A stretch of 49,883 nt of DNA, taken from assembly GCA_026388075.1 (NCBI GenBank), contig JAPLKN010000029.1, forward strand, positions 1 to 49,883, given 5' to 3'. Positions 2,801 through 13,823 of this stretch are shown here, one piece after another. Under the pieces are notes generated by a model. It saw nothing but the letters and a program-made list of their open reading frames with translations, made no database searches and had not been told where the DNA came from. Within the stretch, counting starts at the first letter, position 1. Every line of letters begins with the position of its first letter. The DNA is from Elusimicrobiota bacterium. GTDB lineage: Bacteria > Elusimicrobiota > Endomicrobiia > Endomicrobiales > JAPLKN01. A program made the translations under genes and the position numbers.

Positions 2801-2980
2801 ATGGCAGAAACACTCGTAGTAGTAAGCAAAGTAAAAAAGATGGTAAAAGAAGCGGGATTTCGCACAGGAGCGGATTATATAGCTTCAATTTCGGCGAAAG
2901 TGGAAGAAATGGTAAAAGCATCAATTGAGAAAGCAAAAACAGTCGGTAATAAGAAAACACTTGGCGCTGAGGACATGTAG
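2801..2980 (+). CDS. Bacterial histone-fold protein
   Basis: A 59-residue ORF with a strong ribosome binding site (GGAGG at 2790-2794, six bases before ATG). The protein reads MAETLVVVSKVKKMVKEAG, then a long helix (ADYIASISAKVEEMVKASIEK), then AKTVGNKKTLGAEDM. The pattern of a short helix, a loop with R, a long central helix, a loop with a K-K-T-L motif and a terminal E-D start of a last helix is the single histone fold of archaeal HMf-type histones. The N-terminus closely resembles the short bacterial histones known from Bdellovibrio (Bd0055 type), as I recall them. By analogy it would dimerise and bind or coat DNA. The K-T positions correspond to the L2 loop that contacts DNA. It is monocistronic with its own promoter. 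A search of structure-based histone profiles would settle the family. Confidence 0.8.
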   Translation: MAETLVVVSKVKKMVKEAGFRTGADYIASISAKVEEMVKASIEKAKTVGNKKTLGAEDM

Positions 2981-3053: not shown

Positions 3054-3124
3054 AAGTAATAAGTAAAAAAAATTCACCTTTCTGAAATCTGAGCTGTTAA
3101 AAATAAAAAAATAACAGTATCTAA

Positions 3125-3185
3125 ATACCTCTGAAGAGATCCTTCGATTTCACTCAGGATTTTTTCAGGGGTGTTTTTATTTTGT
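3125..3185 (+). terminator. Terminator-like repeat, copy 1
   Basis: CCTCTGAA (3128-3135) pairs with TTCAGGGG (3164-3171), followed by TGTTTTTATTTTG, the form of an intrinsic terminator. The whole 60-base unit, including the internal CTTCGAT and the T-rich end, recurs at 15973-16033, so it behaves as a dispersed repeat as well. Confidence 0.6.
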
Positions 3186-3345
3186 AATAGGATTTTACAT
3201 TAATATTTTATATAATATTAAAAAAAGAAGGAATTCCACTGGCTCTGTCCTTAATATTAACGTTCACAATTATTTTATGAATTTTCTATCTGTTTTTCAT
3301 AATTTAAAAGAATAATTACTACACTTATACCTAAAGGGGGGAAAG

Positions 3346-3423
3346 GTGTATAGATGCCGAATTTATAATAGTTTTGTTAATTCCAGCATAAAAAATGACT
3401 GCTGGAATTTTTTTATTATATGA
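3346..3423 (+). CDS. Putative 25-residue leader peptide of the tps operon
   Basis: A GTG at 3346 stands four bases after a run of six G (AAAGGGGGG, 3333-3341). The same G6 plus four-base spacing precedes tpsA at 5117-5127. The frame reads MYRCRIYNSFVNSSIKNDCW and a few more residues, then ends in TGA at 3421-3423. That stop overlaps the ATG of tpsB (ATGA). The ORF runs right through the intrinsic terminator at 3379-3414. tpsB has no ribosome binding site of its own, so translation coupled to this leader would explain its expression, and ribosome progress through the leader could open the terminator stem. The peptide has no run of a regulatory amino acid. This is a hypothesis based on geometry alone. 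Confidence 0.45.
   Translation: MYRCRIYNSFVNSSIKNDCWNFFII
3379..3414 (+). terminator. Intrinsic terminator / possible attenuator before tpsB
   Basis: AATTCCAGCA (3379-3388) and TGCTGGAATT (3400-3409) form a perfect 10-bp stem. The run of seven T at 3408-3414 completes an intrinsic terminator. It ends five bases before the tpsB start codon, so it cannot serve an upstream gene without also affecting tpsB. The leader ORF crosses it. Confidence 0.7.
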
Positions 3424-5075
3424 AACTTAAAATAAACATACTATTGATACATATCATGAGAGCCTGCATTTTATCAGCTTTATTATTAATTTCAATATTA
3501 AACACAACTTATGGGTTAACCCCGGATGAACAGCGCGCTTTGGAACAACAAAAGGTAATTGAGCAAAAAGAATCCATGGAAAAACAAAGCCAGGAACTCC
3601 GTAAAATACAGGATGAAATTGAGCTAAAGCGGAAAACCAAAGAGCTTGAAGCTCCAAAGCCTGAACGATTGAGAAAATCGGATATCAGGGAACTGCAAAG
3701 AAAACTGCAAAATTTATACCTTAATCACGGATATATCTCGGCCAGAGTATATCTTGACATAAAAGACCCGCTACCGAACACGCTGAAGTTCACAATTCTG
3801 GAAGGCACCATTGAAAATATCTATTTCGCAGACCCCAATCAAGGAAAAATGCCCATCCGCACGGCGTTTCCCCGGTTAAGAAACAAAACTCTTAATATTC
3901 GCGATATTGAACAGGGGTTTGAACAAATGAACCGTTTGCAGTCAAATAACGCGACTATGCAGATTAAACCCGGAAAAACTGACGGCGGGGCCGAAATTGA
4001 AATCATGAATACCCCCGGGCGCAGGACCAGGGTATCTTATGGAGCGAACAATTCGGGAACCGAATTGACGGGACAGAACAAACATTTCCTGGATCTTCTC
4101 GGTGAAAACCTGTTTAGGCTAAACGAGATGCTGTCCCTGAATTATGGAAGAGGTTTTGAAGATAACGACAGGAAATATGCAAGAAATTACGGCTCGTCAT
4201 TAAGCGTTCCGCTGGGGTACTGGACGTTTGATTTTAATTACAATGCATCCGAATACCTCGCCACAATTCAGGGAATCAGCGGTAATATTTTCTCTAAAAA
4301 TGATTACAATAATTTAAGTTTTTCTGTTGACAGGGTTTTGTCAAGAGCCAGAAGGCACAAAATAAACGCGGGCCTTGGGCTTACCAGCAAGGAATCGAAA
4401 GGTTATCTTAACGGTGTTAAGTTAGATGTTAGCAGTAGGAATCTTATCCCGATGTCTGTTTATGCCTCTCACCTGATATTTTTGCCGGGCGGTCTGCTTT
4501 CGTCCAGGGTAAGTTACATTCATGGGCTTGATATACTGGATGCTCAAGAAGATAGGGCCAATTTGGCAGAAGGCCAGCCGAAAGCTCAATTTCAGGCAGT
4601 TTCATTGAACGAATACTTCTCGTATCGTTTCGCTTTGCCCTATACAAACATTCCGTTAACGTACAGCATAAATTTAACCGGCCAGTATTCTTGGGATGAT
4701 TTGTTCAGTTCGGAACAATTCACGCCGAACGTGCGAGGGTACAGGGAAGGCGGCATATGTGGCGAAAGTGGCGCAAGCGCGAGCAATGATATTCAAACTC
4801 CCCTTATAGGCGTTCTGCCGTTTAAAAACAAAACCGCTCGGTCAATAATAACAAAATTTTCGTTAAACTGCTTTTATGACAAAGGGTTCGTTCAGCATAA
4901 AACCTACGGTGGGAAAGAACATATTTCAGGCTGGGGATACGGGATTTCCGGCAAATTATATGATATAATTAATATGAACATTTACGTTTCTAATCCGTTA
5001 GAAGCGCCGTCAAACGTAACAAAAGAAAGAAACGCATTCAATATGAGCTTGAACATAGTATTACATTTGGTGTAG
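3420..5075 (+). CDS. TpsB-type outer-membrane transporter (ShlB/FhaC/CdiB family)
   Basis: The 551-residue protein secretes its TpsA partner across the outer membrane. A signal peptide (ILSALLLISILNTTYG) is followed by a charged, Q/E/K-rich alpha-helical region (residues about 35-85), a POTRA domain (RELQRKLQNLYLNHGYISAR ... LEGTIENIYF, residues about 90-140), a second POTRA-like part and a beta-barrel to the C-terminus. LNHGYISARVYL is typical of the family POTRA. The barrel ends with alternating hydrophobic residues (MSLNIVLHLV), although the last residue is valine rather than the usual phenylalanine. Length fits the family (about 550-600). The start is uncertain: ATG 3420 overlaps the leader stop (ATGA), and an alternative ATG lies at 3456. 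Neither has a ribosome binding site. tpsA follows after 51 bases. Confidence 0.9.
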   Translation: MKLKINILLIHIMRACILSALLLISILNTTYGLTPDEQRALEQQKVIEQKESMEKQSQELRKIQDEIELKRKTKELEAPKPERLRKSDIRELQRKLQNLYLNHGYISARVYLDIKDPLPNTLKFTILEGTIENIYFADPNQGKMPIRTAFPRLRNKTLNIRDIEQGFEQMNRLQSNNATMQIKPGKTDGGAEIEIMNTPGRRTRVSYGANNSGTELTGQNKHFLDLLGENLFRLNEMLSLNYGRGFEDNDRKYARNYGSSLSVPLGYWTFDFNYNASEYLATIQGISGNIFSKNDYNNLSFSVDRVLSRARRHKINAGLGLTSKESKGYLNGVKLDVSSRNLIPMSVYASHLIFLPGGLLSSRVSYIHGLDILDAQEDRANLAEGQPKAQFQAVSLNEYFSYRFALPYTNIPLTYSINLTGQYSWDDLFSSEQFTPNVRGYREGGICGESGASASNDIQTPLIGVLPFKNKTARSIITKFSLNCFYDKGFVQHKTYGGKEHISGWGYGISGKLYDIINMNIYVSNPLEAPSNVTKERNAFNMSLNIVLHLV

Positions 5076-5126
5076 GTTTCCTAACTGCAGATGTGAGCGG
5101 GAGAACCCCGTTCGCAGGGGGGCAGT

Positions 5127-8100
5127 ATGAACAGGAAAGAAGTTCTTCTACGCAAAGTTACGGCTGTGGCAACTGCAGTGTTTTTTGTTGTTGCTCAAAT
5201 GCCATTACAGGCAGCAGGGATAACGGCTGACGGCCAGACAAACACGACCATTGACGTTACGTCAAACGGGACTCCAATGGTCAACATTGCGCAGCCCAAC
5301 GCGCAGGGATTGTCGCATAACACCTACTCCGATTTTAACGTTGACCCGAATAACCTCGTAATAAACAACTCAAACCACCTAACCGGCGTTTCCCAGACAG
5401 GCGGATATGTTGTCGGAAACCCCAATTTAATCGGAAAAACCGAAGCAAATGTAGTTCTTAACGAAGTTACAAGTAACCGGATAAGTAACTTAAACGGCTA
5501 CATAGAAATGTACGGCAAAGCGGCTGATTTTATCCTTGCTAATCCCAACGGCATTGCCGTTGCGGGAGCCGGTTTTATAAACACCCCTCGCGCAACTCTC
5601 GTTACGGGCACGCCGAACATAGTCAACGGCATGGTTAGCGATTTCGCCCTTTCCCCCACGGGCGCAATATCCATAACCGGCAGGGACGTCCCCGGCCTTA
5701 CAAACCTTGGTTTGGACACTCAATCGGTGGATTTGGCAACTCTTGTATCGCGCGTAATAACCGTTTCAGGTGGCATATACGGCAAAAACGTGCATCTGCT
5801 TTCGGGTAACGATAAATACAGCTATCAGACAAACACGGTATCATCAACCGGGCAGCCGCTTGTTCCTCTTAACACGCAGTTCGGGGTTGACTCATCGGCG
5901 CTTGGCGGAATGTACGCAGGCCGGATAACGATTGTAGCTAACGAAGCGGGGTTTGGCGTAAGAACTGCAGGTGATTTAGTTTCTGATGTAGATGACATTT
6001 CTATAACCTCAAAAGGCGGTATTGAATATTCCAAAGCTTATGCCCGGAGAAACTTGACCGTCCAATCCGTTAATGGCGATGTGGCTAACGCCGATTACAG
6101 TTTTGCAGGAAACGATATCTCAATTTCAGGTAAAAACGTTGCAAGTAAGTATATGAACGCGTCAAACAACATTTCCGTACGGTCAGAAAACAATACAACG
6201 TATGGAACAGCGGAAGCTAAAAATGTAACGGTAAATGCCGGGAACGCGATTACAAACACAAGCGCTACAACGGCGCTGGAAAGTATTACATTAAAAGGAA
6301 AAGATATTGAAGCAAAAGAATTAACTTCAGGACTGGATTTGTCGTTAATTGCAGAAAATTCGTTTACAAACCATGGAAACACCCTATCTTATGGCGATGC
6401 CAGTATAACCGCAAAATCATTAATCCTTGACCCGTCTTACAAGTTTACCGCTCACAAAAATTTAAATCTGACTACGGAAACTTTTGATAATGAAAGCACG
6501 TTCCTAGCCGGGCAAAACATTACAATGAATGCTACAGAAATGACAAACCGCGGCAGCATACAGGCCTACGGAAACGTGCTTATAGACGGGACTGATATTG
6601 AAAACAAGACTTCGGGTCATTTGTATGCGGGAGAAACATTATCTCTTACTGCAACAGGCTCTATAACGAATAATGGCATAGCAGAAGGCGATAGCACAGA
6701 TGTTTCAGCCACGGTAATAACAAATAACGGAAAAATTAACGCGCTTACCGGTACACTGAGCGTTTCCGGCAACACCATAGCCAACAATACCGGCGCTGAA
6801 ATGAATTCTAACGGCACAATGAACTTAACAGCGGCAAATACGTTAATCAATAATGGCAAGATCACTTCAGAAGGCGATTTGAACCTGACCGCAGATACCC
6901 TGGTTTCAAACAATTTATTGCTCTCCGGAGATGATATCAATATGAATGTAAGGGACGCGGTAAATAATTCCGAGATAGCGGCTTATAACAATATAAATAT
7001 CAACGCAGCGGGAAACGTAACCAACAACGGGACCGGGCTCTTGCTTGCAAATAACAATTTAAACATATCCGCGAACAACTTAACAAATTCGCCGAACGGA
7101 TACATATACTCCGGTAATGATTCGCTTTTCCGGATAAGTGGCACTTTATACAATAATCAAGGTCTGATTTATGCCGAAAGAAATATGATAATGCGGGGAC
7201 AGGGCGATGAAACGTCAAAAATGGCAGTGTTGACAAACAACGCGGGCGAGATATCGGCAAAAACCGGCGATTTAACGATAAATGCGAATACAATAAATAA
7301 TTTGAGTATAGACAATTGTGCCGTTCCTCCGGGCTCATTTACGGTATATCAAACAGGAGGGCCACAGTATCCGCCAGACCCTAATATTGCCGGCACTGGA
7401 GAACCTGCTCCCAGAACTTATTCTGTATATTCAAACGTATATGCGATTAAACAGGGTAAAATACTGGCGGGCAACAATATCACGATGAATGCGGGTACTG
7501 TCAGAAATAGAAGCAGTATCGTAGCCGCTCAGAACGGGCTAAATATCTACGCGGGAACAGTATATAATGAAAGGCCGGCGTTTTATGTCACATATACTTA
7601 TGAAGAAGGTATGTCGCCTACAACCGCCCTTTTGTACTCCAATACTCCCGCAGCAATGTCAGGCAGAACGGTAAACATCCAGGCTTCATTAATCTGCATA
7701 GACGCGCCAAATACGAACACTGGCACCATCCCTCAGATACGAGGCGGAACCGACAAGCAAATTGAACAAATTATAAACACGGGAATATTACAGCCTTTGA
7801 TTGTGAACGGAATATCCATAAACCCGGGCCCGGGTTTCAAACTTGCGAAGCCGGACGCAGGTTATCTGTTCCAGAATAATAATCGTTTTCTGAATGAATA
7901 CGAATTCACCGGCTCTGATTATTTTATTAAGCGCATGGGCTTTAACCCGAATACGGGCACGAAATTTTTAGGCGATGCCGTATATGAGCAAAAAATCATT
8001 CAGGACTCGATAATCGCGGCAACCGGAAACCACTATTTATACGACGGCATTGTAAACATGAATCAGCAGATGGAAGTCTTATATGATAATGCCGTTTCCA

Positions 8101-11100
8101 TGTCGGGAAAATTAGGGCTTGAATTCGGCAAGCCTCTCACTGAACAGCAAATCGCACAGCTTGATAAGGACATAATATGGTACATAGAACGCGAGATAAA
8201 CGGGTTTATTGTCCTTGAACCGGTGATGTATTTATGCAAAGAAACTAGAGATAAACTCGGAATGGAAGGAAGCACAATACAGGCAAAGGACGAAGTGAAA
8301 CTTGCTTCGGGCGACACGCTAAGAAACACCGGCACGATCAAAGGAAATAATGTTGTAATCACCGCTAAAAATAACATAGAAAACATAGAAGGAAGAATAG
8401 AGGCGCAGACAAACGTAGCGTTATTGGCAGGCAATGACATAAAAAATATCGGCGGAGCAATAAAATCATCCAATGATATGTTTCTTAAAGCAGGCGGGAG
8501 CATAACGAGCGAGAACATCAAACGGCGCTTAGTCAGTTACGATGGCTGGAAAGACGAAATTGTGTCACAAGGCAGTATAGAAGCAGGCAGAAAAGGGATT
8601 TTTGAAGCGGCAAAAGATTTCGGCATATTGGGGGGCTCAAGCCTTATGACGGGCTCGGACATGGTAATTAATACCGGTGGAAACATAAATATAACCGCAG
8701 AAAGGCTTGATGAAAAGCATGATACTTACGAGGGTTTATCGGAAAAAACGCGGTATCTTTTGGCGGCAGTCGGCGCGGGCGGTAATTTGCTTATGCGCTC
8801 AGGCGGGGACACAAACGTCATTGGCGGGAACGTAACGTCAACTTGTGACCTGGTGTTGAACGCAGGCGGTAACGTGAACATAGAGTCGGTGCAGGAAAGG
8901 GATTACAGCTACAGTCGAACTGAAGATAAGGACTTCTGGGGCAACAGCTCTAGCGAAGTAAAAGAAAGTGAAACAACGAGAAACATTGCGAGCAAGCTGA
9001 ATTCAAACAGAAATTTAACTATAACTTCCGGCGGCAATACCAAAATAAAAGGAAGCGATGTTGAAGCTTTAGGTAATATCGGCATTGAAACTAAGGGCAA
9101 TCTTGCCATAGTGTCAGGGCAGGACACTTCAAGCAGTTATTCCAAAAAAGAAAGCAGTAATATCATAGACAAAAATAAAGAGGAAACGGGAAACCTCAGC
9201 ATAAAACAAATAGCCTCAAACATTAAAGCGGGCGGAAACATATCAACAAAATCGGGCAATAATACCACCATAATTGCTTCCAATGTTTTAACCGAAAGAG
9301 GCGACGTTACGCTGGATTCAGCAGGAAATATAAATATGCTTGCGGGTGAAAACGTTACCGTCAAAAGCCGCAATCAGGACGAATCGGGCAATTTTGGTTT
9401 AAGCGAAAGCGAGACCCGTGAACGTAGTTCTAAAACAACCCTTGAAGCGTCAAACACGATTTCTGGCAGAAACATAAATTTAAACGCCAATAAGGATTTT
9501 ACGACTGTTGCTTCTAATGTCGGAGCCGCAGGCGACGCCGAAATAGAAGCCGAAAACGTAAACATATTAGCTGGCAATGAAAAAGACGAATACAGCTACT
9601 ACCACCGCGAAAAGGACCTTGCCGACATAAACATTGGCGCATTATATGGCTACGGCTGGGAGATTGGTGACGGGAAAGCAACCGTTGAGCTTGCAAAGTT
9701 TAATGAACGGGAAAATTACAGCGGCCATTATGACGAAACCGCAAAAGGTTCGGCAATAAACATTGGCGGTAATTTAAAGGTAACCACGTCAAAAGACGTG
9801 AACATAATCGGTTCCGATGCGGCGGCAGACAGCGCGGACGTCAATGCAAAGGGAGACATTAAGGTTGCATCAGCCGAAGAAAAACATACCTCATATGAAG
9901 GCAACAAAGAAACAAAGATAACGGTTTCAGCGGGGATAGGGAATGCGTACGTAGATGCATACAATGCCGGCGATGCCTTAATCAAAGCCGGGGAAGAAGT
10001 AAAAAAAGCAAACGAAGCATTAAACGAAATGAAACGTTTGGAAAAAGAAGGCAAAGCGAGCAAAAGCGCAGTAGAGGATGCCGAGCTAAATCTTGCGATG
10101 GCAACAGCGAATTTGGCGCAGGCAACAACATCACTTACAAGCAGCGCGGCAAGTGCGGCGACAGCGGCAAGCACTAGCCTGGGAACAGGTCTTTACGCGG
10201 ACATGACAGTTGAAAGAAACGGAACGGAAACAAGAACGGACAAAACGGCGCTGACCAATCGCGGAAGCGCGATTGTCACGAATAATAACCTTAATTTGAA
10301 ATCCGGTAATGATATTAACCAGAAAGGGAGCGCGGTATCATCAATCAATGGTGATATAAGCTATGAAGCTGACGGAAATATCGCGATAGTATCAAGCGAA
10401 GACAAATACAATGAGAAGACAAACACAAAAGAAGTAAATGAAAGGGTAAGTTATGGCTCTAATGGTGTAAATGCTAATGTAAACAGCGCGGAAAGCGAAA
10501 GCAGGGCAAACAGCGTAACAAACAATAACAGCATTGTATCGGCAGGTGGAAACATAAATATTAAATCAGGGAATGAAACAAAGATTCGCGGCGGAAACAT
10601 AGAAGGCGAAAACATAGAAGTAGACGCGGATAAATTAATTGTTGAAAGCGTGCAGGACAGTTATTATTCAAATTCAAAAGGCGGAAATACCGGAATAGGC
10701 CTGGGCAAGAACAGTGTTAATGCAAGTTATGGTGATTCCAGCAGTAAGGTTGATATGCAATGGGTGAATAATCAAAGCGGGATAGTGTCAAAAGGAAAGC
10801 TTGACATAAAAGCAACCGATGAAACAACGGTAAAAGGAGCGGTTATAGGAAGTCAGACAGGCGATATGGCCCTTGCGACAGGGAAATTGACGACAGAAGA
10901 TATAGATGATAGAAATGTAAGTGAAGCGCGCGGATTGAATATAAATACGAATATCGGCAAGACCGGCGACAGGCAAAAAGACAGCAGGTTTCCAAACGGG
11001 AGCACTACAGTAGGGTTGAAGAATTCCGCGAATGAAAAGGAGCAAATTACAAAAGCAACGATAGGCGAAGGAACTGTCATCCTGAACGAAGCGAATGACC

Positions 11101-12560
11101 TTTCCGGCGTAAACCGCGATCTGTCAAATACGCAGGAAACGACAAAAGACCAGATAACAAGAGCGCTAGACGGCAATGTAACTGTTGATAACCGCGTCTT
11201 TACTGAAGCGGGCCGTGAAGCGATAGTGAAGGACTTCAAGGATCTCGGGAAAAATGTAAATCAAATAGGCAAAGGGTTAACAAACAATGTTGTCGTTCAG
11301 TCTGTAAAGAACGCTGTAACTGATAAAAAGACTAACATAATAGAAGCGGTTAAGGATTATGTCAGGGACGATAAGAAAATACAAGAAATCCAGGAAAGTA
11401 AAGAGCTGACAGATAAACTTAATGGATTGACGAATGAAAATGCCGAAGGCGTGCAAGACAGCCTGCAAAAAACAGCCGATATTTCGGGCAAAGACGGGGG
11501 CTTTGAGGGTAATGTTGAATTGTATAACAACAGCGATGAAACCAAAGGGTACTCTTACAGCAAAAACGGTGAAAATACTGTAGGGGTAAATACAAGAAAG
11601 ACAGATTTGACAAATAGCGGGGAAATAATCAATACTGTATTCCACGAGACAACGAATGCAGATAAACACTCGCAAAATAACGACAGAACAGCTCTAAACA
11701 GAGGCGATACAGCCGAAGCGATATGGGGTTTAAAGAATTTCGGTAATGAGAACACGAACACGTTGACGAACGAGGAATGGAATTCCCTGAACGGTAACAG
11801 CAGCGTACTGAGAACAGGGAATAATAATAGGATAATAAATTATTTTAATGCCGGAAATAAGCTGGGTTTGTTGAACGAAATGACGTTTGGTTTATTGAAC
11901 GAAGTGACGATATCATTGCCAGGGTCTACTAAATTTATAACAGAGCCACCACAAATTGATTTCGGACCGTTAGTAACGCCTGTAAGTGATATTATATCCA
12001 AACCGCTTATAACGCCGGTAGCCCAACCGGACCCGAATGGGGGCAAAGAGATAACCCCGATATCCGAGCCGGATACAAAACCGCTTATCACGCCTGTCCC
12101 AACGGGAGATGAACTTGGAACAAGCAAGCCTTATATGGAGTTGGGCGAGGTAAGGCAGACAACGCCGGAAGAAGCGAATAAACCATATACGGATAAAGGT
12201 TGGGTAGCGCCATATAAAGAAGGAACAAGCGTAACAGATAACAAAGTAATAGGGGAAGAAAAATATGTAAGGTTGCATGGTGAGGATAATCAGGCCAATG
12301 AATGGCTTGTGAAGGAAAGCGAAATTACAAGATCGGATGGGACACTTATGAGCCCGGAGGAAATAAAAAATATATTATCTCTTCCCAGCATACCCACGAA
12401 AATATCTGATGTAGCAGTGCCCGATGGCACTATGGTTCGTAAAGGGACCGCAGCAGGAGTTCCTGAATGGAATACTAAAGGTGGAGGGGAGCAGCATGAG
12501 ATACTTGATGTGGACGAAATAAAAGCAAGTTGGTTTACCAACGAAAGGGGACTAAAATGA
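5127..12560 (+). CDS. TpsA exoprotein: filamentous-haemagglutinin / CdiA-like toxin
   Basis: A 2477-residue secreted giant. A signal peptide covers residues 1-30. The TPS secretion domain (about 31-280) carries the conserved NPNL (98-101) and NPNGI (139-143) motifs recognised by TpsB. A long beta-helix stalk follows, built of haemagglutinin-type repeats (T-N-N-G, G-N-I-N-I, A-G-N-D-I patterns), interrupted near 1619-1680 by an Ala/Glu-rich coiled segment. A pre-toxin block (about 2110-2250; HETTN, LNRGDTAEAIWGLKNFGN) leads to a proline-rich linker with two KPLITPV units. The C-terminal domain (about 2350-2477; LSLPSIPTKISDV, GTMVRKGTAAG, GGGEQ, WFTNERGL) resembles, from memory, a toxin domain found at the C-termini of other haemagglutinin and polymorphic toxin proteins; its activity is unknown to me. 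Six G stand four bases before ATG. The stop overlaps the immunity ORF, as in cdiA-cdiI pairs. Confidence 0.92.
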   Translation: MNRKEVLLRKVTAVATAVFFVVAQMPLQAAGITADGQTNTTIDVTSNGTPMVNIAQPNAQGLSHNTYSDFNVDPNNLVINNSNHLTGVSQTGGYVVGNPNLIGKTEANVVLNEVTSNRISNLNGYIEMYGKAADFILANPNGIAVAGAGFINTPRATLVTGTPNIVNGMVSDFALSPTGAISITGRDVPGLTNLGLDTQSVDLATLVSRVITVSGGIYGKNVHLLSGNDKYSYQTNTVSSTGQPLVPLNTQFGVDSSALGGMYAGRITIVANEAGFGVRTAGDLVSDVDDISITSKGGIEYSKAYARRNLTVQSVNGDVANADYSFAGNDISISGKNVASKYMNASNNISVRSENNTTYGTAEAKNVTVNAGNAITNTSATTALESITLKGKDIEAKELTSGLDLSLIAENSFTNHGNTLSYGDASITAKSLILDPSYKFTAHKNLNLTTETFDNESTFLAGQNITMNATEMTNRGSIQAYGNVLIDGTDIENKTSGHLYAGETLSLTATGSITNNGIAEGDSTDVSATVITNNGKINALTGTLSVSGNTIANNTGAEMNSNGTMNLTAANTLINNGKITSEGDLNLTADTLVSNNLLLSGDDINMNVRDAVNNSEIAAYNNININAAGNVTNNGTGLLLANNNLNISANNLTNSPNGYIYSGNDSLFRISGTLYNNQGLIYAERNMIMRGQGDETSKMAVLTNNAGEISAKTGDLTINANTINNLSIDNCAVPPGSFTVYQTGGPQYPPDPNIAGTGEPAPRTYSVYSNVYAIKQGKILAGNNITMNAGTVRNRSSIVAAQNGLNIYAGTVYNERPAFYVTYTYEEGMSPTTALLYSNTPAAMSGRTVNIQASLICIDAPNTNTGTIPQIRGGTDKQIEQIINTGILQPLIVNGISINPGPGFKLAKPDAGYLFQNNNRFLNEYEFTGSDYFIKRMGFNPNTGTKFLGDAVYEQKIIQDSIIAATGNHYLYDGIVNMNQQMEVLYDNAVSMSGKLGLEFGKPLTEQQIAQLDKDIIWYIEREINGFIVLEPVMYLCKETRDKLGMEGSTIQAKDEVKLASGDTLRNTGTIKGNNVVITAKNNIENIEGRIEAQTNVALLAGNDIKNIGGAIKSSNDMFLKAGGSITSENIKRRLVSYDGWKDEIVSQGSIEAGRKGIFEAAKDFGILGGSSLMTGSDMVINTGGNINITAERLDEKHDTYEGLSEKTRYLLAAVGAGGNLLMRSGGDTNVIGGNVTSTCDLVLNAGGNVNIESVQERDYSYSRTEDKDFWGNSSSEVKESETTRNIASKLNSNRNLTITSGGNTKIKGSDVEALGNIGIETKGNLAIVSGQDTSSSYSKKESSNIIDKNKEETGNLSIKQIASNIKAGGNISTKSGNNTTIIASNVLTERGDVTLDSAGNINMLAGENVTVKSRNQDESGNFGLSESETRERSSKTTLEASNTISGRNINLNANKDFTTVASNVGAAGDAEIEAENVNILAGNEKDEYSYYHREKDLADINIGALYGYGWEIGDGKATVELAKFNERENYSGHYDETAKGSAINIGGNLKVTTSKDVNIIGSDAAADSADVNAKGDIKVASAEEKHTSYEGNKETKITVSAGIGNAYVDAYNAGDALIKAGEEVKKANEALNEMKRLEKEGKASKSAVEDAELNLAMATANLAQATTSLTSSAASAATAASTSLGTGLYADMTVERNGTETRTDKTALTNRGSAIVTNNNLNLKSGNDINQKGSAVSSINGDISYEADGNIAIVSSEDKYNEKTNTKEVNERVSYGSNGVNANVNSAESESRANSVTNNNSIVSAGGNINIKSGNETKIRGGNIEGENIEVDADKLIVESVQDSYYSNSKGGNTGIGLGKNSVNASYGDSSSKVDMQWVNNQSGIVSKGKLDIKATDETTVKGAVIGSQTGDMALATGKLTTEDIDDRNVSEARGLNINTNIGKTGDRQKDSRFPNGSTTVGLKNSANEKEQITKATIGEGTVILNEANDLSGVNRDLSNTQETTKDQITRALDGNVTVDNRVFTEAGREAIVKDFKDLGKNVNQIGKGLTNNVVVQSVKNAVTDKKTNIIEAVKDYVRDDKKIQEIQESKELTDKLNGLTNENAEGVQDSLQKTADISGKDGGFEGNVELYNNSDETKGYSYSKNGENTVGVNTRKTDLTNSGEIINTVFHETTNADKHSQNNDRTALNRGDTAEAIWGLKNFGNENTNTLTNEEWNSLNGNSSVLRTGNNNRIINYFNAGNKLGLLNEMTFGLLNEVTISLPGSTKFITEPPQIDFGPLVTPVSDIISKPLITPVAQPDPNGGKEITPISEPDTKPLITPVPTGDELGTSKPYMELGEVRQTTPEEANKPYTDKGWVAPYKEGTSVTDNKVIGEEKYVRLHGEDNQANEWLVKESEITRSDGTLMSPEEIKNILSLPSIPTKISDVAVPDGTMVRKGTAAGVPEWNTKGGGEQHEILDVDEIKASWFTNERGLK

Positions 12561-13036: not shown

Positions 13037-13823
13037 TCCGCCAAAGGCGTACAAGACAGCCTGCAAGAAACAGCCAATATTTCGGGCAAAGACGTCGGCT
13101 TTGAGGGCAATGTTGAATTGTATAACAACAGCGATAAAACTAAAGGGTATTCCTATAGTAACAACGGCGAAAACACCGTTGGGGTAAACACAAAGACTAC
13201 AGATTTGACAAATAGCGGGGAAATAATCAATACTGTATTCCACGAGACAACAAACTTCGACAGGCACACGAAAAACGAGCAAACGGCGTTAAACAGAGGT
13301 GACACCGCTGAAGCTATATGGGGTTTAAAGAATTTCGGGAATGAGAATACGAACAAGCTGACAAAAGCGGAGTGGAATTCGCTGAATGGAAATAGCAGTA
13401 TACTGAGAACAGGGAATATTGATGCGATAATAAATTACGTGAATGCCGGGAATAAGCTGGGTTTGTTGAACGAAATGACGATATCGCGGAACAGAAAGTG
13501 TTCAAAACAAATCAAAGGAGACAACGAATAAACCGGAGAAAGTTGTTCTTGGACATCATCCAGAGTATGTTAATCTTGCTGATAAATCAGGTGCTAAAAA
13601 ATTTAATATCCCAGAAAAAGTGTGGGAAAGGATGAGTCAGGAACAAAGATGGGAAGCAAACAAAAAATTCCTTGATAGGGCGATCAATCGAGGTGACGAA
13701 ATAATATTAGCAACTCCTGCAAAAAGTGCTAGGCCAAACAGTTATTTTGAAAAGGAAATACAGTATTTGTCGAGTAAAGGTTATGTGACAAATGCTGATG
13801 GAACGAAAATGATAAGGAGATAA
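13037..13823 (+). pseudogene. Orphan tpsA C-terminal module 1 (pre-toxin plus toxin, frameshifted)
   Basis: Starting just after an in-frame TAA at 13034, the frame encodes a near copy of tpsA residues about 2107-2255 (KGVQDSLQETANISGKD; NTVFHETTNFDRHTKNEQTA; AIWGLKNFGNENTN) without a start codon. After NAGNKLGLLNEMTIS near 13485 the reading frame changes. The second frame gives a different toxin domain: VVLGHHPEYVNLADKSGAKK, NIPEKVWERMSQEQRW, FLDRAINRGDEIILATP, ending at 13823. From memory this domain is common at the C-termini of Rhs and haemagglutinin polymorphic toxins. A startless module joined to its own immunity gene is the form of an orphan cdiA-CT cassette. Recombination through the shared pre-toxin block could put it on the tpsA stalk, once the frameshift is resolved. 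Confidence 0.8.

What the first reader, a model, noticed from the sequence alone, without database searches (positions are those of the whole stretch)
3330..3423. Leader ORF, intrinsic terminator and tpsB start interlocked
A 25-codon ORF (GTG 3346) has the same G6 plus 4-base ribosome binding geometry as tpsA. It runs through a complete intrinsic terminator (10-bp stem plus T7) and ends in an ATGA overlap with tpsB, which lacks a ribosome binding site. This looks like translation-linked attenuation of a contact-dependent-inhibition-like operon, which I do not know from described systems. The geometry is read directly from the sequence; the regulatory role is inference.
Basis: partly seen in the sequence, partly recalled or inferred. 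Interest (0 to 1): 0.72.

Follow-up and report, generated by a model that had tools for sequence, protein, structure and literature searches.

The report
Translated leader runs through operon terminator
Just before the genes for a secreted giant surface protein, an uncultured bacterium seems to carry a stop signal for transcription that lies inside a tiny translated gene, so the ribosome probably decides whether the big genes are read; a second, related gene set in the same genome has the same parts in another order.

Summary
The geometry is real. A 25-codon ORF (GTG 3346, TGA 3421-3423) with one of the strongest Shine-Dalgarno (SD) sites in the sampled genome runs through an intrinsic terminator (3379-3414) and ends in an ATGA overlap with tpsB (3420), which has almost no SD. 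A separate strong terminator (3123-3178) closes the upstream gene, so the one at 3379 sits in the tpsB leader. The best support is internal. The genome's only other ShlB-type gene (contig C102, 41-43% identical) has a promoter, a strong-SD 11-codon ORF ending 2 nt before a terminator, then a 16-codon ORF overlapping the tpsB2 start. Of 59 intergenic terminators in 0.91 Mb of this genome, only these two have such a strong-SD mini-ORF aimed at them. Among tpsB relatives elsewhere, 1 of 79 has a terminator within 100 nt upstream. I read this as ribosome-dependent transcription attenuation plus translational coupling. Each half is known (pyrL/pyrBI and bmrB; uPPE2-PPE2). Their fusion in one ORF, on a two-partner secretion operon, looks new to me. 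Not shown: promoter, leader translation, termination in vivo, the signal, and conservation (no close relative is held). The contact-dependent-inhibition label is only partly supported.

The parts
3123..3178 (+). Strong terminator closing the upstream (histone-like) gene; separates it from the tps operon
   Evidence: Fold of 3115-3190: -28.7 kcal/mol, z -6.2, no shuffle of 200 as stable, followed by a U-rich tail
3319..3352 (+). 5' hairpin of the leader; G6 partly in the loop, GTG start codon inside the stem
   Evidence: -9.4 kcal/mol, 11 of 500 shuffles as stable; GTG unpaired probability 0, G6 0.03-0.98
3336..3341 (+). G6 Shine-Dalgarno site of the leader ORF
   Evidence: Duplex with anti-SD -11.3 kcal/mol, beyond the 5th percentile (-9.9) of 173 sampled genes
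3346..3423 (+). 25-codon leader ORF, GTG start, TGA stop; reads through the terminator
   Evidence: Translation; shuffle tests
3354..3389 (+). Possible antiterminator hairpin pairing with the terminator's 5' arm (weak evidence)
   Evidence: -7.3 kcal/mol against -11.5 for the terminator; 9 of 500 shuffles as low; no counterpart in the second operon
3379..3414 (+). Intrinsic terminator (attenuator): 10-bp stem, 11-nt loop, T7
   Evidence: Inverted repeat; -11.5 kcal/mol, 10 nt from stem end to tpsB ATG
3420..5075 (+). tpsB: outer-membrane TpsB/ShlB transporter with POTRA domains; start overlaps leader stop (ATGA); weak SD
   Evidence: PF03865 1.1e-64, PF17287 1.3e-19, PF08479 7.1e-8; SD -3.3 at 12 nt
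5117..5122 (+). G6 Shine-Dalgarno of tpsA, at the edge of a very stable hairpin
   Evidence: SD -10.0; fold of 5076-5145 -27.1 kcal/mol, z -4.1
5127..12560 (+). tpsA: 2477-aa filamentous-hemagglutinin-type secreted exoprotein
   Evidence: PF05860 TPS 1.4e-40, PF13332 hemagglutinin repeats; TIGR01901

Best explanation
The region is a ribosome-dependent transcription attenuator joined to a translational coupler, in the leader of a two-partner secretion operon (tpsB-tpsA). RNA polymerase starts upstream of about 3336 and makes a leader whose only strong ribosome site is G6-GTG 3346. If a ribosome initiates there and follows closely, it covers the 5' arm of the terminator (3379-3388) as that arm emerges. 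The hairpin cannot form and transcription continues into tpsB. The same ribosome ends at TGA 3421-3423 and re-initiates on the overlapping ATG 3420, because tpsB has almost no ribosome site of its own. If leader translation is poor or lags, the terminator forms and the operon is off. Shown by sequence: ORF, SD strength, terminator, overlap, position in the leader, and a paralogous operon with the same parts split over two mini-ORFs. Inferred: promoter, translation, suppression of termination, re-initiation. The signal is unknown; a general read-out of ribosome supply or growth is the most economical guess.
For: Exact geometry and shuffle tests. Leader SD among the strongest in the genome. The upstream gene has its own stronger terminator at 3123-3178, and only 5 nt separate T7 from tpsB ATG, so no tpsB promoter fits downstream of the attenuator. 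Internal replicate: the only other ShlB gene of the genome, on C102, has TTGACA-17-TAAACT, a strong-SD (-11.4) ORF MVFLKQLLTSR* ending 2 nt before a -19.7 kcal/mol terminator, and MKRLIQAEFNGSYVKC* whose stop overlaps the tpsB2 start. Of 59 intergenic terminators tested in 0.91 Mb, only these two have an SD <= -11 mini-ORF running into or up to them. A terminator within 100 nt upstream of tpsB is found in 2 of 2 operons here against 1 of 79 elsewhere (Fisher 0.0009). Precedents: translating ribosomes suppress intrinsic terminators, with loss of suppression when the ORF's ribosome site is removed (PMC4824070); AUGA re-initiation with an SD-less second gene (PMC11260477).
Against: No sigma-70-type promoter of 9 of 12 or better was found upstream of the leader. 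The GTG start codon is paired in a 5' hairpin, so initiation may be poor. The terminator lies only 33 nt after the start codon; [quoted passage not shown] There is no conservation outside this genome. The shuffle and SD cut-offs were chosen after seeing the sequence. The genome is a fragmented assembly with no RNA data.
Confidence: 0.5

Rival explanations
1. Passive attenuator: the terminator sits in the leader and simply lowers expression by constant partial termination. The ORF frame through it is incidental, and tpsB is translated from its own weak site.
For: tpsB's weak SD is ordinary for this genome (median -3.3). A leader terminator without any recurring leader ORF is seen before rimP across the order. 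An SD-led ORF at the looser cut-off ends at the tpsB start in 15-34 of 1000 shuffles.
Against: Leader SD of -11.3 and its repetition at tpsB2 (-11.4), the only two such cases among 59 terminators. Exact ATGA overlap with a gene whose weak SD lies inside the terminator arm.
Confidence: 0.25
2. The leader ORF plus terminator is a free-standing small gene or small RNA (about 3320-3414), and tpsB is driven by its own promoter inside or just after the terminator.
For: An SD, a short ORF and a terminator form a complete small transcription unit. A TATAAT lies at 3364-3369.
Against: Only 5 nt separate T7 from tpsB ATG. The TATAAT at 3364 has no -35 or TG element and would start RNA at the terminator's edge. 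The ORF extends past the terminator, so a terminated RNA would lack its stop codon.
Confidence: 0.1
3. Factor- or ligand-controlled attenuator: a protein, small RNA or metabolite binds the 5' hairpin or the antiterminator/terminator pair, and translation is secondary.
For: A stable 5' hairpin with a G-rich loop, and a possible antiterminator 3354-3389.
Against: No Rfam family matches. No csrA gene was found in the genome. The antiterminator is weak and absent from the second operon, and the tpsB2 5' region is no more stable than its shuffles (225 of 500).
Confidence: 0.1
4. Chance: an unrelated terminator-like hairpin and a random ORF next to tpsB.
For: Single genome, cut-offs chosen afterwards, no conservation data.
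Against: 3 of 2000 and 18 of 2000 shuffles for the two operons separately at SD <= -11; 2 of 2 tpsB genes here against 1 of 79 elsewhere for a nearby upstream terminator.
Confidence: 0.05

Closest known systems
E. coli pyrBI attenuation (pyrL leader)
   Same: Intrinsic terminator lies inside the leader ORF; a closely following ribosome suppresses it (PMC4824070, PMC5021804).
   Different: pyrBI is set by UTP-dependent pausing in a pyrimidine operon. Here no pause element was tested, the signal is unknown, the operon encodes two-partner secretion, and the leader stop overlaps the first gene.
B. subtilis bmrB leader of bmrCD
   Same: Leader ORF with a GTG start and an intrinsic terminator within the ORF, controlling the genes behind it (PMC4191407).
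   Different: bmrB is longer and works by antibiotic stalling with an antiterminator; bmrB and bmrC are separated by an intergenic region.
M. tuberculosis uPPE2-PPE2
   Same: Leader ORF ending in an AUGA overlap with an SD-less gene whose expression needs leader translation (PMC11260477).
   Different: Controlled by a B12 riboswitch; no intrinsic terminator inside the leader ORF is described in the passages read.
tpsB2 leader in the same genome (contig C102)
   Same: Strong-SD mini-ORF, terminator, and a second mini-ORF overlapping the tpsB start.
   Different: The two functions sit in two ORFs; the first ends 2 nt before the stem, and tpsB2 has its own SD (-6.9).
E. coli ampC growth-rate attenuator (from my own knowledge)
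   Same: Ribosome binding in the leader hinders a leader terminator.
   Different: ampC has a start-stop pair rather than an ORF through the terminator; not checked here.

Membership tests
Ribosome-dependent intrinsic attenuator with terminator inside the leader ORF (pyrL/bmrB kind) | Short leader ORF with its own ribosome site | tested here: met
   GTG 3346, SD -11.3
Ribosome-dependent intrinsic attenuator with terminator inside the leader ORF (pyrL/bmrB kind) | Intrinsic terminator lies within the leader ORF and before the first structural gene | tested here: met
   3379-3414 within 3346-3423; tpsB at 3420
Ribosome-dependent intrinsic attenuator with terminator inside the leader ORF (pyrL/bmrB kind) | Promoter upstream of the leader | tested here: inconclusive
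   No consensus promoter of 9 of 12 or better; its place is inferred from the upstream terminator 3123-3178
Ribosome-dependent intrinsic attenuator with terminator inside the leader ORF (pyrL/bmrB kind) | Read-through depends on leader translation | not testable with these tools
   Needs a reporter or coupled transcription-translation
pyrBI attenuator proper | Pyrimidine operon with UTP-sensitive pause | tested here: not met
   Operon genes are tpsB and tpsA; pausing itself not testable
Amino-acid biosynthesis attenuator (trp/his kind) | Run of codons for the regulated amino acid | tested here: not met
   VYRCRIYNSFVNSSIKNDCWNFFII has no such run, and the genes are not biosynthetic
Translational coupling by AUGA overlap (uPPE2 kind) | 4-nt stop/start overlap and weak or absent SD in the second gene | tested here: met
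   ATGA 3420-3423; SD -3.3 at 12 nt
Translational coupling by AUGA overlap (uPPE2 kind) | Second gene's translation depends on the first | not testable with these tools
   Needs reporter mutants
Known riboswitch or RNA leader family (Rfam 15) | Match at gathering score | tested here: not met
   No match in the window; only chance-level matches at relaxed threshold
Two-partner secretion system | TpsB with POTRA and ShlB domains next to TpsA with a TPS secretion domain | tested here: met
Contact-dependent inhibition (CDI) | Toxic C-terminal domain with adjacent immunity gene | tested here: inconclusive
   No Pfam or NCBIfam toxin or immunity match, but a duplicated C-terminal module downstream, 76% identical, resembles an orphan cassette

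The most novel reading that the evidence does not exclude
In this bacterial lineage, two-partner secretion operons are gated by dedicated ribosome-sensing leaders: a mini-ORF with an extreme SD both suppresses an intrinsic terminator and hands its ribosome to tpsB. The giant exoprotein operon is then transcribed and translated only when ribosomes are in surplus. One operon fuses both functions in one ORF and the other splits them over two, which would show how such leaders evolve.
Probability: 0.35. Interest if true: 0.62.

Novelty: new variant of a known kind. Interest (0 to 1): 0.47.

Why it matters
TpsA proteins of 2,500 residues are costly, and how their operons are switched is little described. 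If the reading holds, one short leader makes both transcription and translation of the operon conditional on the same ribosome. That is a compact all-or-nothing gate which can be tested with a reporter in E. coli K-12. The two operons of one genome would also be a natural pair showing the fused and the split form of one regulatory logic.

Tried and rejected
Shared leader elsewhere: DNA search of 3225-3425 in the own genome found only itself. A genome-wide G6+4 ribosome-site habit: 5 hits against 3 for the control pattern. Known RNA families: none. CsrA binding at the G-rich loop: no csrA found. Close relatives: the single-protein scan of genome contigs found none; the alignment scan found only 23-35% relatives; the phylum search of 341 genomes gave at best 37% outside this genome. 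Conservation of a leader in 26 relative loci: no comparable terminator within 100 nt upstream. rimP as a third example: it has a terminator 15 nt before the start and an ORF MNSLPSSSEDGFFF* through it, but the relatives keep the terminator without a recurring leader ORF, so I do not count it as support for the ORF. Joining contigs C102 and C2 into one tpsB2-tpsA2 operon: their ends are similar but not identical, so it is only suggested. Phase variation at G6: I judged the tract too short (own knowledge). Papers on attenuation of TPS/CDI operons: none found with the terms used.

Full report
WHAT WAS CHECKED. The sequence was read directly. The leader ORF starts at GTG 3346, is 25 codons long and stops at TGA 3421-3423. 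A perfect 10-bp inverted repeat (3379-3388 / 3400-3409, loop 11) followed by T7 (3408-3414) lies inside it. tpsB ATG 3420 overlaps the stop as ATGA. The standard terminator scan missed the hairpin because it allows loops of at most 8; a custom scan gives -11.5 kcal/mol.

SURROUNDINGS. tpsB has POTRA and ShlB domains; tpsA has a TPS secretion domain and hemagglutinin repeats, so this is a two-partner secretion operon. The related genomes found with tpsB are Elusimicrobiota, several of them Endomicrobium, and the window's genome has only order-level relatives in the held set. The gene upstream (2801-2980) is closed by its own, far stronger terminator at 3123-3178 (-28.7 kcal/mol, z -6.2). The hairpin at 3379 is therefore not needed to end that gene, and with 5 nt between T7 and tpsB ATG there is no room for a tpsB promoter behind it. 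It is best read as a leader terminator. The promoter itself was not identified: the best sigma-70-like matches before the leader reach 8 of 12.

RIBOSOME SITES. Duplex energies with the anti-SD sequence (assumed standard) were computed for 173 genes of this genome. Median -3.3, 5th percentile -9.9 kcal/mol. Leader GTG -11.3, tpsA -10.0, tpsB ATG 3420 -3.3 at an over-long 12 nt, inside the terminator's 3' arm. The leader site is extreme; the weak tpsB site is common. The GTG lies in the stem of a 5' hairpin 3319-3352, so initiation could itself be gated.

CHANCE. With only the 100 nt upstream of the terminator shuffled, an SD <= -11 ORF running into the terminator appears in 3 of 2000 shuffles, and one ending at the tpsB start in 2 of 2000. 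At a looser SD cut-off (-5) an ORF of at least 20 codons ends at the tpsB start in 15 of 1000. These cut-offs were chosen after seeing the sequence.

INTERNAL REPLICATE. The genome has only one other ShlB-type gene, on contig C102, 41-43% identical. Its upstream region, with positions (L043, minus strand), reads: -35 TTGACA 2636-2631, 17 nt, -10 TAAACT 2613-2608; then GGGGG-AAGT-ATG 2573, an 11-codon ORF MVFLKQLLTSR* (SD -11.4) whose stop ends 2 nt before a 13-bp terminator 2535-2505 (-19.7 kcal/mol) with a U-tract; then SD -6.4 and a 16-codon ORF MKRLIQAEFNGSYVKC* (2485-2435) whose stop overlaps tpsB2 ATG 2441 as ATGTTAA. The two jobs that one ORF would do in the window (hinder the terminator, deliver a ribosome to tpsB) are here spread over two ORFs. 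PMC4824070 shows that a stop codon a few bp before a terminator almost abolishes termination and that removing the ORF's ribosome site restores it, so the C102 geometry fits the same logic.

HOW UNUSUAL. In 0.91 Mb of this genome (782 called genes), 60 intergenic terminators were found, 12 of them within 150 nt upstream of a same-strand gene start. Several of those 12 have a promoter-like sequence between terminator and gene. Of 59 with enough upstream sequence, only the two tpsB leaders have an SD <= -11 mini-ORF aimed at them. Among 79 tpsB-family loci from other genomes, one has a terminator within 100 nt upstream of the start, against 2 of 2 here (Fisher 0.0009). Among 26 Elusimicrobiota loci, none has one within 100 nt; some of these genomes are in both sets.

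MECHANISM. Shown by sequence: ORF, SD, terminator, overlap, leader position, paralogous arrangement. From the literature: ribosomes suppress intrinsic terminators, and the pyrBI terminator lies within its 135-bp leader gene (PMC4824070; PMC5021804); bmrB carries an intrinsic terminator inside a leader ORF (PMC4191407); an AUGA overlap makes SD-less PPE2 depend on its leader ORF (PMC11260477). Inferred: promoter, leader translation, read-through control, re-initiation, signal. A caution from PMC4824070: terminators in the first 100 bp of an ORF are often not suppressed unless pausing synchronises ribosome and polymerase. A possible antiterminator (3354-3389, -7.3 kcal/mol, 9 of 500 shuffles) would help or complicate this, but it has no counterpart in C102. 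An alternative short frame from ATG 3354 (four codons, stop 3366-3368; read) would end before the terminator, as the first C102 ORF does, and cannot be excluded.

VERDICT. It is a new variant: through-terminator attenuation and stop/start coupling fused in one leader, on a two-partner secretion operon. The lack of RNA data and of close relatives keeps confidence near one half.

Noticed in passing
L055 2005-2080 (minus strand) and upstream of rimP in L130-L158: A hairpin with a U-tract lies directly upstream of rimP in 25 of 26 readable genomes of the order (typically GGCGGCU...AGCCGCC then U-rich), with no Rfam match in the seven loci scanned. It looks like a conserved, undescribed attenuator of the rimP-nusA operon.
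   Followed up: partly
L043 2435-2640 (minus strand): Leader of tpsB2 with promoter, strong-SD mini-ORF, terminator and a second mini-ORF overlapping the tpsB2 start; the paralogue of the finding.
   Followed up: yes
window 13118-13531: ORF repeating the region of TpsA residues 2132-2251 at 76% identity, followed by small ORFs; looks like an orphan exchangeable C-terminal cassette behind tpsA, with no Pfam match.
   Followed up: partly
window 5076-5145: Very stable hairpin (-27.1 kcal/mol, z -4.1) just before tpsA, touching its G6 ribosome site; may limit or couple tpsA translation.
   Followed up: partly
window 2801-2980: 59-residue ORF MAETLVVVSKVKKMVKEAGFRTGADYIASISAKVEEMVKA... resembling a small bacterial histone-fold protein (from memory; no Pfam match).
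   Followed up: no
L043 1-40 and L046 13690-13732: The ends of contigs C102 and C2 encode the same NKEIVESMF stretch with synonymous differences, suggesting a strain-variant break between tpsB2, a gene that looks repeat-rich (MORN-like by eye, not tested) and tpsA2.
   Followed up: partly
L086 2600-2700: Terminator-like hairpin 41 nt before a dihydrolipoamide-dehydrogenase-like gene, flanked by further inverted sequence; possible leader element.
   Followed up: no
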